A stretch of DNA of 64,000 nucleotides, taken from positions 806,001 to 870,000 of the forward strand of contig CP054178.1 of the NCBI GenBank assembly GCA_015709595.1, read 5' to 3'. The position numbers and the translations under genes are program-made. Each line of letters opens with the position of its first letter. Position 1 is the first letter of the stretch. Shown here piece after piece: positions 9,968 through 13,790 of the stretch. The notes under the pieces were generated by a model that was not told the DNA's origin, did not search any database, and was given only the letters and a program-made list of their open reading frames with translations. The stretch comes from Phycisphaeraceae bacterium (GTDB lineage: Bacteria > Planctomycetota > Phycisphaerae > Phycisphaerales > SM1A02).

Positions 9968-10687
9968 TCAACGAACACGAACAGGCAGCGTCAAGTGAAC
10001 GTCGGCGCCTGGAACTTCGAGCATCACGTCGCCTGAACTGTCGCCTTCATGGGCCTCGATCGTCAACTCACACTGCCACCGACTGGACGCAGCCGCTTCT
10101 CCGCCCGAGACGCGCATCCATTCGCCGGTTGTGGACGAGTATCCGTTTGGCGTCAGAACTTTCAGTTGCGGGGGCGCGCTCTGACCTGGGCTGCGACTGG
10201 AGTACTGGACGGGGATACGGCGCGGCGTGTCGCGCGCGACGACAACTTCATCAATGAGCGCAGTCAGCGCCTCGGGCAGCACGACTCGTGCTTGGAGCGT
10301 CAACTGAACGGGCTGTGCGTAGCCGGCGAATCGCATGGCCGCCAGTTGCCCGAACTGCCCCGGCTTGTGAACCGCGATCTTGACATTGACGGTCAGGGAC
10401 TCCCCCGGCGCGATGCTCTTCGGCTCCGCATCGACACCCACGCATCCGCAGGTGGAAGTCACGCCTTCGACGTGAAGGTACCCGCGCGATGCATTGACGA
10501 GCCGGAACGTGTGCTCGTATAACTTTGATTTGTCGCTGAGTACGATCTCGCCAAAATCGTACGACACGTCACCGTCCAGGCGGACCGCCTGCCCTTGAGC
10601 GCCGGTCACCCAGCCGACGAGCGCCGCCGCGGAACCCAGGACGCCGACCACAACACAAGTGAGTATCAACGGTCTGGTGCGCATCAT
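9968..10687 (-). CDS. DUF1573 domain exported protein
   Basis: The N-terminus MMRTRPLILTCVVVGVLGS... is a signal peptide or anchor ending near VTGAQGQA. The DUF1573 domain follows (VSYDFGEIVLSDKSKLYEHT, FRLVNASRGYLHVEGVTSTC, GCVGVDAEP, IAPGESLTVNVKI), an Ig-like fold with the typical TCGC motif common in Bacteroidetes and planctomycetes. The C-terminal 110 residues look like a second beta-sandwich. Function is unknown for the family. It is the last gene of a four-gene operon: its ATG at 10687 overlaps the TGA of the preceding gene. It converges on the M20 peptidase gene, 35 bp away. Confidence 0.85.
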   Translation of the reverse strand: MMRTRPLILTCVVVGVLGSAAALVGWVTGAQGQAVRLDGDVSYDFGEIVLSDKSKLYEHTFRLVNASRGYLHVEGVTSTCGCVGVDAEPKSIAPGESLTVNVKIAVHKPGQFGQLAAMRFAGYAQPVQLTLQARVVLPEALTALIDEVVVARDTPRRIPVQYSSRSPGQSAPPQLKVLTPNGYSSTTGEWMRVSGGEAAASSRWQCELTIEAHEGDSSGDVMLEVPGADVHLTLPVRVR

Positions 10688-11889
10688 ACCGCCCCCTCGG
10701 CGCGTCGCGCGCCAATGTACCGGAACAACCAGATCACGCCGAGGACCGCAGCCGCGGCCACGATGCCATAGGCGAGCGGGTTCAGCCACGAGCGGAGCGG
10801 GCCGGGCGTGGCGGGGGCGGCGATGGGTTGAACCTCGACGACGCGCTCCGCCGATGCGAGGAGTTCGGTCATCCGTTCACCCGGATGCGACAGAATCGGC
10901 TCCCGGGTGCGATAGATCACGCCGTCCACGACGAATGTGCCTTCACCGACGACGAACTGAAGCCCAGCGCGTTCATCGCTGACCGGCGTGCCCTTATCGA
11001 GCGCCGGCCTGAACATCTCATCGAGCGGCGTCAACGGCTCGATCTTGACCCGTCTGTACCGCTCGACTCGACCGTGCCATTTACCGTCCGGGGGCGTGAT
11101 GCCGTCACGTGAACTGCCTCCGACGATGACAAATCCCTCGATGGCGCGGCCACCCTGGTCTGGTGGTTCCCAGTCAGTGATGATCCGATCGACTCGCAGC
11201 CGTGGCAAACCTTCGGGGTTCTTCGAATCGGTGAAATGTTGGGTGAATCGAAGTAGTCGTTGATGTGCCACATCGAGTTCAACTTCCCAGTATCCGTCAG
11301 ATTGCGTTGACCCCTTGAACCTCCACGTCAAACGGCCATCGGTTTGTTCGTGAGACATTGGTTCACTCCGCCGGATCATTTCGGCAAGCGACGGGAATTG
11401 AAGTCGAACCACGCCCTCCAATTCATTGAGAAGGTAGGCGAATCCTCTCGTGTCCGGTGCTGAATGCATTGCGCCCATGTCTATGGTGCCTGTGCGCCGG
11501 CGGACGGCTGCCTGTTCGCCATCCCAGTACTGCTCTAGCTCGTGGCGCCCATCAACCGCAAGAGCCACACGGTACCGTCCTGACGACCACCACACTTCGA
11601 GCGAAGCGACCGGATCGAACGCCACGGCCTTGACCAGCGCGTCAAGTTCGTCAGGCGAGGTGGGGGACTTGCGTGAAAACGGAGTCGTGGCACGTTCAAT
11701 CACCCACGTGGCCATGAATGGGTCACGGCCCATCACCCGGGTCTGGGCATGATGAACAAGGGTGGCGACGCGATCGACCGTCCACCCATCGTCGGGCTCG
11801 ATGGGCGGATCTTGCGCCCAAAGCGAATCGCCGAAGGAAACGAGAACGCCACCCAAGGCGACTCCGATCAGAAGGCGACGCTGCTTCAC
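10684..11889 (-). CDS. Exported protein with C-terminal membrane anchor, unknown function
   Basis: A 401-residue protein starting at a GTG that overlaps the TGA of the upstream cysteine-rich gene (GTGA). A signal peptide (KQRRLLIGVALGGVLVSFGD...SLWAQ) and a single C-terminal hydrophobic helix (YGIVAAAAVLGVIWLFRYIG) followed by Arg residues suggest a periplasmic protein fixed to the membrane at its end. The central part is rich in beta-like alternation (YRVALAVDGRHELEQYWDGE, WEVELDVAHQRLLRFTQHFT) and may resemble LolA/LolB-type folds, but I could not assign it. Its base composition looks lower in GC than its surroundings. It must act with its coupled neighbours. Confidence 0.75.
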   Translation of the reverse strand: MKQRRLLIGVALGGVLVSFGDSLWAQDPPIEPDDGWTVDRVATLVHHAQTRVMGRDPFMATWVIERATTPFSRKSPTSPDELDALVKAVAFDPVASLEVWWSSGRYRVALAVDGRHELEQYWDGEQAAVRRRTGTIDMGAMHSAPDTRGFAYLLNELEGVVRLQFPSLAEMIRRSEPMSHEQTDGRLTWRFKGSTQSDGYWEVELDVAHQRLLRFTQHFTDSKNPEGLPRLRVDRIITDWEPPDQGGRAIEGFVIVGGSSRDGITPPDGKWHGRVERYRRVKIEPLTPLDEMFRPALDKGTPVSDERAGLQFVVGEGTFVVDGVIYRTREPILSHPGERMTELLASAERVVEVQPIAAPATPGPLRSWLNPLAYGIVAAAAVLGVIWLFRYIGARRAEGAV

Positions 11890-12272
11890 ACGCCACCTCC
11901 ACCCGTCGGAAGAGGACAGCTCTGGAAATTACACCGATAGTTCGACACCTCAGCAAAGAGAATGCACTGAAGAGATTGGTTGCAGATACCGAAGTGATAG
12001 TAACCACAGTTGATGGTGACGACCTGACAAGTTGTGTTGGGATTCCCCTCGCAGTTCGGGAGCTTCTCCGGTTCCGTGCAGATGAAACAGAGATTCGGAT
12101 TCTCGGGCGGACCGGGGCACACTCCGACGCTTGGACAGTCAATGGAGTGATACTTGCACAGAGAATGCTGGTACGTCTGTCCCACGGCAACACACGCGGA
12201 GACAACCGCTCCGATTGAGGCGGCCACGACGATGTTGAGAGACGTGAAGCGATGGGATCGGAAGAATGTCAC
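11886..12272 (-). CDS. Secreted cysteine-rich small protein
   Basis: A 128-residue protein starting at a GTG with GGAGG six bases upstream. The GTG overlaps the TGA of the preceding gene, and its own TGA overlaps the next gene's GTG. After a basic start and a hydrophobic segment (SLNIVVAASIGAVVSACVAV), the mature part from QTYQHS carries twelve cysteines in about 95 residues, as in LCKYHSIDCP, NLCFICTEPEK, NTTCQVVTINC and YRCNFQSCPLP. The even number and export signal suggest a disulfide-knotted periplasmic or extracellular protein. The tail is PTGGGGV. GC content is clearly lower than in surrounding genes. I recognise no family. Confidence 0.75.
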   Translation of the reverse strand: MTFFRSHRFTSLNIVVAASIGAVVSACVAVGQTYQHSLCKYHSIDCPSVGVCPGPPENPNLCFICTEPEKLPNCEGNPNTTCQVVTINCGYYHFGICNQSLQCILFAEVSNYRCNFQSCPLPTGGGGV

Positions 12273-13729
12273 TTTGAACCTCCGTTGGCTGTTTGAGTCT
12301 CTGCCGTTGGTGGCGTACGCAGTGTGATCTCGATGGATTCGGTTGATGCACCTCCCCATCGATATCCTGAATCATCAAGAAGCGCCTTGTTGGCGAATGC
12401 CTCAAAAGGCGCACGATCGCTGTCGACGACCCAATGGCGCAATCGGCTGACTGTCCGGCGCATGGCCGCCCGTCGGGCAGAGTCAACTCGGCCGAGGGAC
12501 TCCCGGGTCTCATCCTGCACACCCACACTTGCCAGGTTCCCTGCGGCCGTGATTCGCCGCAGTTGCAGTGCAAGGAGCCGCTGCTCCTCCACAAGCGGTC
12601 CAGAATCGCGTCGATGCGCCTCAACAATCGCCGCAATCTGCGCCCGAACCTCCGGCGCCTCCATCCCCGGGCGCTCCAGCAGCCACTCGGCCACGCGCTC
12701 CGCGGCGTCCACGCGATACGCGGCGGGGAAGTTGACCCGATCCACCGCCGCGGTGAACACCGAGCGCAACTCCGCTTCACGCCCCTCCGGCGAGCCGGAT
12801 TCGATCACCTGCGCGATCTGGAGCGCGGTTCGCTCGTTGAGGGACCAGTAGCGGTCGAACATGCCCAGCACGCGCCGCTTCAGCGCGTCCGCGGCCGGGC
12901 CATCCCCCGAGTCTGATCGGATTTCAAGCGAGCGAATCTCAGGCCACGACCGAGCACGCTCCACCGACATGGCGGCCAGTTCTGCCCGATAGGCCGTCTG
13001 CACTTTCCGGAACTCGTCACTATCGCCCACGATTCGGGCGATCTCCGGCTGGGATTCGCTCACCGACTCAAGGACATCCAGGAGGCAGATGCGCGAGCCC
13101 AGATCGCGCTGGGGCTGGGCCTCGATGTTGTTCAGCAGCACATCAATGATGAAACGCTCACGGGCCGCCAGAATGGCGCCCCCATCCACCGCCTCAGTCG
13201 CCAGCGATGTCACATCATCCAGCAGTTTCATCAGGTCGGCAAGAAACCGCTCGACCGCCGGCGCGTGTTCCTGCTTGTGGAACAGCTGCCGCTGACTGGT
13301 GTAATCGGCGGGAAGGAACTCGCCCGGATAGGTCGCCAATGGTTTGCCGTCCGGCCCTTTGCCCCACGGCATGACCAGTTCTTGGTACGCGTTGGTGAGT
13401 TTCGCGCTGACCTCCCGCGTCGATTCGCCGTGAAGCCGATACAGGTCCAAGGCGATGGTGCGCCCGTCATCGTTGAGCCGCAGCCGCTCGATGAGCCGCT
13501 CCAGATGTCGCGGCGTCACCTGATAGACCAGCCAGTACTTTGGGCCGAGGGGCGGGGCGTTCTTGCGGGCCTCATCCATCCGCCGCTGCATTTCCTGCTG
13601 AGCGATCTTCACCCAGGGGTGCTCTTCCTGTTCCTGCCCATCCTGCGCCAGCGCGTGCGGCGACGACACTGCCACGCAAAAAGCAGCAGCCAGCCCGGTG
13701 ATCGTGAGTTGTCGGATTCCCCAGTTCAT
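12269..13729 (-). CDS. Exported helical protein, unknown function (first gene of operon)
   Basis: A 486-residue protein with a clear signal peptide (GIRQLTITGLAAAFCVAVSS, cleavage near HALAQ). The rest is mostly charged and helical, with heptad-like stretches such as LAARERFIIDVLLNNIEAQP and AEWLLERPGMEAPEVRAQIA. No catalytic motif was recognised. An AAGGGG ribosome-binding site precedes the ATG, and a candidate promoter lies 34 bp upstream. It heads a four-gene unit in which each stop overlaps the next start by four bases, so all four proteins are probably made in a fixed ratio and work together outside the cytoplasm. Confidence 0.78.
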   Translation of the reverse strand: MNWGIRQLTITGLAAAFCVAVSSPHALAQDGQEQEEHPWVKIAQQEMQRRMDEARKNAPPLGPKYWLVYQVTPRHLERLIERLRLNDDGRTIALDLYRLHGESTREVSAKLTNAYQELVMPWGKGPDGKPLATYPGEFLPADYTSQRQLFHKQEHAPAVERFLADLMKLLDDVTSLATEAVDGGAILAARERFIIDVLLNNIEAQPQRDLGSRICLLDVLESVSESQPEIARIVGDSDEFRKVQTAYRAELAAMSVERARSWPEIRSLEIRSDSGDGPAADALKRRVLGMFDRYWSLNERTALQIAQVIESGSPEGREAELRSVFTAAVDRVNFPAAYRVDAAERVAEWLLERPGMEAPEVRAQIAAIVEAHRRDSGPLVEEQRLLALQLRRITAAGNLASVGVQDETRESLGRVDSARRAAMRRTVSRLRHWVVDSDRAPFEAFANKALLDDSGYRWGGASTESIEITLRTPPTAETQTANGGSK

Positions 13730-13762: not shown

Positions 13763-13790
13763 AACATATCAGAGATCAGGGGGGTGGCAA
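13763..13790 (-). promoter_or_regulatory. Candidate promoter of the four-gene exported operon
   Basis: On the minus strand, TTGCCA (13790-13785) and TATGTT (13768-13763) are separated by 16 bp. The -10 lies 34 bp before the ATG at 13729. This is a fair sigma-70-type match in the only non-coding stretch upstream of the operon. Confidence 0.4.

What the first reader, a model, noticed from the sequence alone, without database searches (positions are those of the whole stretch)
9968..13729. Four-gene, fully coupled operon of exported proteins: candidate undescribed envelope system
Seen: four leftward genes joined by 4-base stop/start overlaps (GTGA at 12269-12272, GTGA at 11886-11889, ATGA at 10684-10687). 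All four products have signal peptides or membrane anchors: a 486-aa helical protein, a 12-cysteine miniprotein, a 401-aa protein with a C-terminal anchor, and a DUF1573 protein. Such tight coupling usually marks subunits of one complex. Apart from DUF1573, whose own role is unknown, I recognise none. The middle two genes have lower GC than the surroundings. A periplasmic disulfide-linked complex is my inference.
Basis: partly seen in the sequence, partly recalled or inferred. Interest (0 to 1): 0.68.

Follow-up and report, generated by a model that had tools for sequence, protein, structure and literature searches.

The report
Planctomycete disulfide-miniprotein and LolA-fold operon
A small exported protein that appears to be braced by internal disulfide bonds is encoded beside a membrane-tethered protein shaped like a known carrier and a protein of unknown role; this undescribed gene module recurs, patchily, in planctomycete bacteria.

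Summary
In detail: four coupled leftward genes (window 9968-13729) for proteins with signal segments or anchors. The window's genome holds three more diverged copies of the same four-gene set, and relatives hold dozens of partial or full sets. P3 (401 aa) is predicted to have the LolA/LolB/RseB fold plus a C-terminal anchor. P3 and DUF1573 share one reading frame in 10 loci. The 12-Cys miniprotein has no credible Pfam, NCBIfam or PDB match. It loses cysteines only in fixed pairs (C3 with C9 in 5 of 48 rows; C4 with C10 in 3 of 48), which points to internal disulfides. Of 26 P3 places found with a P3-only query, 22 carry the miniprotein next door. P1 is accessory, seen only in the window's own family. 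The genes diverge at broadly similar rates, which mildly favours one working unit over a toxin-immunity pair. Most likely the module is a miniprotein with its dedicated membrane-tethered LolA-fold/DUF1573 partner; the biochemical job is unproven. Disulfides between the proteins are not shown.

The parts
12269..13729 (-). P1: 486-aa exported protein, helical by look (first gene of the operon here)
   Evidence: ORF; no Pfam match, one weak NCBIfam match (E 0.048) that is ignored; family alignment A10; paralogues in the three other sets of the genome
11886..12272 (-). P2: 128-aa signal-bearing 12-Cys miniprotein (GTG start)
   Evidence: ORF; family alignments A1, A5, A8, A9
11916..12158 (-). 12-Cys core of the miniprotein, C39 to C119
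   Evidence: 9 invariant columns in 48 rows, 8 of them Cys; paired loss of C3/C9 and C4/C10; AlphaFold pLDDT 92-94 in the ten-residue blocks of 61-120
10684..11889 (-). P3: 401-aa LolA-fold protein with signal segment and C-terminal anchor (GTG start)
   Evidence: ORF; model, Foldseek, VIA-align
10966..11784 (-). LolA-like domain, about residues 36-308 of P3
   Evidence: aligned range to LolA/LolB chains
10699..10779 (-). C-terminal membrane helix of P3, residues 371-397
   Evidence: AlphaFold secondary structure; hydropathy
9968..10687 (-). P4: 239-aa DUF1573 protein with N-terminal hydrophobic segment
   Evidence: PF07610, 50.3 bits
10442..10450 (-). CGC motif of DUF1573 (residues 80-82)
   Evidence: conserved in the three-row alignment and in 33 of 42 module DUF1573 ORFs or ORF pieces
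13763..13790 (-). promoter-like site about 33 bp before P1, weak evidence
   Evidence: consensus scan: 2 sites found, 0.8 expected by chance

Best explanation
The operon encodes a miniprotein and its own handling machinery in the cell envelope. The miniprotein is exported by its signal peptide and folds outside the cytoplasm into a compact domain braced by up to six internal disulfides (two pairs inferred from data here, the rest assumed). P3, a LolA-fold protein held to a membrane, probably the inner one, by its C-terminal helix, binds the miniprotein or a hydrophobic ligand that goes with it (inferred from fold and linkage). DUF1573 works on the same side of the membrane as P3, as part of one unit with it (indirect: the two are fused in several loci). 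Its CGC motif may help make or rearrange disulfides (speculative). P1 is an optional exported helper. The four would be translationally coupled and act as one complex or relay that matures, holds or presents the miniprotein.
For: Four paralogous sets in one genome. 22 of 26 P3 places from a P3-only query have the miniprotein adjacent; 19 of the 26 have DUF1573 in the cluster or fused. Of 8 further P3-only loci, 4 have the miniprotein by HMM and 1 has a diverged 13-Cys ORF. P3-DUF1573 fusions in 10 loci, 11 ORFs, two of them with a weak P3 match (L102, L144); Pfam finds DUF1573 in 4 of the 5 fusions scanned. LolA fold: 8cgm E 1.5e-8; Z 14.1, rmsd 3.6 over 204 residues to P. gingivalis LolA3. 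Paired loss of C3/C9 (5 of 48) and C4/C10 (3 of 48), never one alone; Fisher p 5.8e-7 and 5.8e-5, not corrected for kinship. A sixth C3/C9 loss, in L170, is an eye reading. Paired extra Cys in three rows, L164 twice and L166. Broadly similar divergence of the genes in 9 locus pairs. Same module in another family of the phylum.
Against: No interaction was measured or modelled. P3 relatives without an adjacent miniprotein exist: L063, L066 and L068 twice; L171, L174 and L176 (the last two weak); two Gimesia-type records on contigs under 4 kb. DUF1573 was not found beside P3 in L061, L063, L066, L068 twice and L074, nor in L059, where the contig ends. The C-terminal helix is found in 23 of 40 non-fused P3 ORFs. 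DUF1573 is Ig-like, not a thioredoxin fold (recalled; a Pfam Ig-like model overlaps it), and CGC may be structural. On the P3 tree the C3/C9 losses need only 3 changes, and C4/C10 only 1, two of its three rows not being on the tree. Two miniproteins, L065 and L104, have an odd number of Cys after the signal segment. Copy A places P1 last.
Confidence: 0.42

Rival explanations
1. Stress sensor: the LolA-fold P3 works like RseB/MucB, binding misfolded or mislocalised envelope material, with the miniprotein as a sacrificial redox indicator.
For: RseB and MucB are among the fold matches; a LuxR-type HTH ORF, recognised by eye, precedes copy A.
Against: RseB matches less well than the best LolA-type chains (Z 7.6 against 14.1). 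No sigma or anti-sigma gene was noticed by eye beside the four sets; no profile search for one was made.
Confidence: 0.13
2. Secreted effector or bacteriocin system: the miniprotein is released against other cells and the anchored proteins protect the producer.
For: Small, exported, cysteine-rich, multi-copy with diverged paralogues, patchy distribution; low GC3 hints at transfer. With shared Cys left out, the miniprotein core is less conserved than P3 in 5 of 8 locus pairs.
Against: Over its whole length the miniprotein is less conserved than P3 (or the P3-DUF1573 fusion) in 4 of 9 pairs and more conserved in 5. PADLOC matches none of the four proteins. DUF1573 and LolA folds are not known immunity folds (recalled).
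Confidence: 0.17
3. Structural envelope component: the miniprotein is a cross-linked surface or wall protein, the other genes its assembly factors.
For: Cysteine-rich (YTV) proteins are known in planctomycete cell-wall preparations (PMC8567305, passages read).
Against: Four of the 12 Cys behave as internal pairs. In a phylum-wide draw 7 of 392 genomes gave a match, a lower bound, so it is unlikely to be a general wall part.
Confidence: 0.12
4. Metal-binding miniprotein: the cysteines bind a metal and P3 or DUF1573 deliver it.
For: Many Cys; C4 and C5 are 2 or 3 residues apart in the 45 rows that have C4. DUF1573 occurs as a UGC selenoprotein form in published lists.
Against: Exact pairwise loss of cysteines fits disulfides better than a cluster.
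Confidence: 0.08

Closest known systems
LolA/LolB lipoprotein carriers
   Same: Predicted fold of P3 residues 36-308; exported.
   Different: P3 has a C-terminal anchor here and about 90 further residues; no lipid or lipoprotein cargo shown; its neighbour is a miniprotein without a lipobox (by eye).
RseB/MucB
   Same: LolA-like first domain.
   Different: Weaker structural match; no sigma/anti-sigma partner noticed by eye.
DUF1573 (PF07610) proteins
   Same: P4 is a member with the CGC motif; a UGC selenoprotein form of the family is listed in print (PMC9312934, PMC13188914; passages read).
   Different: Here it is tied to, and in 10 loci fused with, a LolA-fold protein.
Cysteine-rich YTV cell-wall proteins of Planctomycetales
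   Same: Cysteine-rich, cell envelope, planctomycete (passages of PMC8567305 read).
   Different: Described there as restricted to Planctomycetales; no sequence comparison was made here.
NVEALA small exported proteins of Bacteroidetes, beside DUF1573 genes
   Same: Small exported protein near DUF1573 (recalled, from no call).
   Different: No NVEALA match among the 22 miniproteins scanned with Pfam; that Pfam holds such a model is recalled.

Membership tests
LolA/LolB superfamily (P3) | LolA fold | tested here: met
   predicted model only: Foldseek E 1.5e-8, VIA-align Z 14.1 over 204 residues
LolA/LolB superfamily (P3) | Pfam or NCBIfam LolA model reaches its cut-off | tested here: not met
   P0003 has no hit; 1 of 19 members hits LolA_like at E 0.0046; 0 NCBIfam families at E<=0.01 for 29 members; PDB sequence search with the profile finds no LolA
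LolA/LolB superfamily (P3) | shuttles lipoproteins between membranes | not testable with these tools
   needs biochemistry
DUF1573 (P4) | PF07610 above gathering score | tested here: met
   50.3 bits against 26.1
DUF1573 (P4) | CGC motif | tested here: met
   residues 80-82
LTXXQ/Spy/CpxP (P1) | PF07813 match | tested here: not met
   P0001 no hit; 1 of 16 members at E 0.0021
RseB/MucB (P3) | partner anti-sigma factor nearby | tested here: inconclusive
   none noticed in the ORF lists by eye; no profile search made
NVEALA (miniprotein) | Pfam NVEALA match | tested here: not met
   0 of 22 miniproteins at E<=0.5
Anti-phage defence | PADLOC model match | tested here: not met
   0 of 4 proteins at E<=0.1
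YTV cell-wall proteins (miniprotein) | YTV domain | not tested
   no YTV profile or sequence was compared

The most novel reading that the evidence does not exclude
A dedicated biogenesis line for a new class of disulfide-braced extracellular proteins: a membrane-tethered LolA-fold protein together with a CGC-bearing Ig-like DUF1573 domain acts as a private chaperone/foldase in place of the general Dsb machinery, giving DUF1573 its first function, and the miniprotein has a new fold.
Probability: 0.15. Interest if true: 0.82.

Novelty: categorically new. Interest (0 to 1): 0.57.

Why it matters
Three of the window's four proteins have no usable match in Pfam or NCBIfam, and the miniprotein model has no structural match in the PDB set searched. 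The label 'categorically new' rests on this make-up and on the literature searches listed under Tried and rejected, not on a demonstrated function. The module gives DUF1573, a family of unknown role, a regular genomic partner (a LolA-fold domain, at times in the same chain) and a candidate client. The predicted disulfide pairs C3-C9 and C4-C10 make it directly testable.

Tried and rejected
Sequence searches of the PDB with profiles of P3, the miniprotein and P1 gave nothing useful. Fold searches with the miniprotein model gave a best Foldseek E of 1.7 and no VIA-align match with Z 2 or more among 94 chains; this does not prove a new fold. Pfam and NCBIfam on the miniproteins gave no credible family (for 22 rows; for 48 rows). 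Spy/CpxP for P1 was considered from its look and not upheld. BFVD (the viral fold library) was not searched.

Rows set aside: L107 and L108 came from the class-wide miniprotein search, but their ORFs look like chance and were left out of alignments, so 2 of the 14 genomes counted are doubtful. The second, short miniprotein of L101 (8878-9234, 8 Cys), L145 (partial) and L152 (divergent) were left out of A9. L169, L170, L172 and L175 were found after A9 was made and are not in its 48 rows. L173's 13-Cys ORF is not counted as an HMM match. G1185's match was not read. The broken DUF1573 of copy C was left out of the DUF1573 alignment.

Prevalence is a lower bound: where a genome had many first-look candidates only part of them were scored, 6 to 30 at most depending on the search. 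Start codons of relatives were chosen by eye. Placing L170 and L175 by automatic addition misaligned them, so their Cys patterns are eye readings.

Papers: DUF1573 in 3 papers, all three seen as passages; NVEALA in none; planctomycet + cysteine-rich + LolA in 1, PMC12419801, whose passages concern LolA-like genes in other operons; planctomycetes + disulfide + cell wall proteins + cystine in none; planctomycet + cysteine-rich + cell envelope in 7, of which PMC8567305 and PMC12419801 were seen as passages and the rest as listing; Phycisphaer + cysteine-rich in 2, unrelated by listing; a search with choice-of-anchor D, cysteine and CGC motif gave 8, none relevant by listing. No paper was read whole.
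Full report
OBSERVATION. The window lies in a 3.84-Mb single-contig genome. No Pfam family is credible for P1, the miniprotein or P3; P4 is DUF1573. GC3 is 0.64-0.74 in the four genes against 0.82-0.90 in three neighbouring reading frames, one of them taken in part, so the low GC is not confined to the middle two genes. A promoter-like site lies just upstream of P1, at a level that chance could give.

PARALOGUES. Searching the same genome with P3 gave three further places, each beside a DUF1573 match; the one in copy C is below the family's cut-off. Reading these places showed all four kinds of gene each time. Copy B (L018) and copy C (L019) have the order P1, miniprotein, P3, DUF1573; copy A (L003) has miniprotein, P3, DUF1573, P1. 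The proteins are 20-28% identical between the window and the other copies (DUF1573 compared for copies A and B only). Copy B has two ATGA overlaps, copy C three, copy A one. Copy C's DUF1573 is split between two frames.

RELATIVES. With a P3 profile, 15 of 61 genomes (own included) gave 26 places. Reading them, 22 of 26 have a miniprotein ORF directly upstream; L063, L066 and both places in L068 do not. DUF1573 is in the cluster or fused in 19 of 26; L059 is cut by a contig end. P1 is found at E<1e-3 in 12 of 26. Beside the four P3 without miniprotein lies a P1-sized ORF; the P1 profile supports this for L066, weakly for L063, and not for L068. With miniprotein profiles, 14 of 397 genomes of the class (two of them doubtful), 20 of 181 of the family, 25 of 400 of the order, 7 of 392 of the phylum and 3 of 170 of a second family had matches; the sets overlap and are lower bounds. 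A second P3-only search found matches in 15 of 298 genomes of the class. Of the 8 places not seen before, 4 have the miniprotein by HMM, 1 has a diverged 13-Cys ORF, 3 have none. Over the 47 loci with a miniprotein (E<1e-3) in the pooled set, P3 (E<1e-2) is found in 43, DUF1573 in 38 and P1 in 19 (both E<1e-3); some loci are cut by contig ends, and this pool is not independent of the queries. All P1 matches at E<1e-3 are in the window's family. P3 and DUF1573 are one reading frame in 10 loci, 11 ORFs, with a weak P3 match in L102 and L144. Pfam confirms DUF1573 in 4 of the 5 fusions scanned, not in L141. In the second family, two tandem miniproteins lie beside P3 and DUF1573 in both loci read. 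The P3 of one of them is 67% and 75% identical to records named Planctomycetaceae bacterium and uncultured Gimesia sp.; that family is in the window's phylum, which places the window in Planctomycetota. Those two records, both on contigs under 4 kb, show no miniprotein beside P3.

MINIPROTEIN. In 48 aligned miniproteins nine columns are invariant, eight of them Cys. Twelve Cys columns stand out; eight are filled in all 48 rows. C3 and C9 are missing together in five rows (L061, L064, L074, L150, L151) and C4 and C10 together in three (L065, L070, L105). No row lacks one of a pair alone. Fisher p values are 5.8e-7 and 5.8e-5, uncorrected for kinship. On a P3 tree the C3/C9 losses need three changes in both columns; for C4/C10 only one of the three rows is on the tree. 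L170 is a sixth C3/C9 loss by eye. Three rows (L164 twice, L166) have two extra Cys, one between C3 and C4 and one between C9 and C10. Less tidy: L065 and L104 have an odd number of Cys after the signal segment, and L061, L071 and the two L165 rows carry other extra Cys. AlphaFold gives the core high confidence (blocks of 61-120 at 92-94; mean 79.1, pTM 0.60), and no PDB match was found. No coordinates were available to check Cys distances.

P3. The model (mean pLDDT 75.6, pTM 0.70) matches LolA, LolB and other LolA-fold proteins at the top of both comparisons, with RseB/MucB behind. Sequence profiles alone barely see this. A C-terminal hydrophobic stretch is present in 23 of 40 non-fused P3 ORFs; two of the other 17 (L168, L100) are cut by contig ends.

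DUF1573 AND P1. Of 42 DUF1573 ORFs or pieces, 33 carry CGC and 5 another CxC; of the 4 without, 2 are pieces of split ORFs. Published selenoprotein tables list DUF1573 with a UGC motif (passages), which suggests, without proving, a redox role. P1 is helical by look; one of 16 members reaches LTXXQ weakly.

DIVERGENCE. In 9 locus pairs, some holding only part of the set, the genes differ by similar amounts: the miniprotein is less conserved than P3 (or the fusion) in 4 and more conserved in 5. With the shared Cys left out, its core is less conserved than P3 in 5 of the 8 pairs computed. This speaks mildly against an arms-race toxin and does not exclude one.

MECHANISM. Shown here: repeated co-occurrence, fusion of P3 with DUF1573, LolA-like predicted fold, Cys pairing signals. 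Inferred: one envelope unit in which the tethered LolA-fold/DUF1573 pair handles the miniprotein. Speculative: CGC-driven disulfide chemistry, and the final destination of the miniprotein.

VERDICT. A real, recurring, undescribed module; function open. A periplasmic complex is plausible but untested. Disulfides within the miniprotein are supported; disulfides between the proteins are not shown.

Noticed in passing
L019:7512-8221: DUF1573 of copy C is split between two overlapping frames: decay or a sequencing error. L072:6843-7485 shows the same.
   Followed up: partly
L101:5831-9234 and L100: L101 has two miniprotein-P3 sets in tandem; the two P3 share identical last 45 residues, which looks like gene conversion. 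A prepilin-like gene (FSLIELLV) lies beside a miniprotein in both loci.
   Followed up: no
L003:7688-8224: LuxR-type HTH ORF, recognised by eye, just upstream of copy A.
   Followed up: no
L068:3737-8495: Two tandem pairs of a P1-sized exported ORF and a P3 without miniprotein or DUF1573, perhaps a separate use of P3.
   Followed up: partly
L010, L011, L012, L016: Four further DUF1573 places in the genome outside the four sets.
   Followed up: no
L164:7253-8222 and L165:6740-7701: Tandem miniproteins in a second planctomycete family, related to Gimesia.
   Followed up: partly
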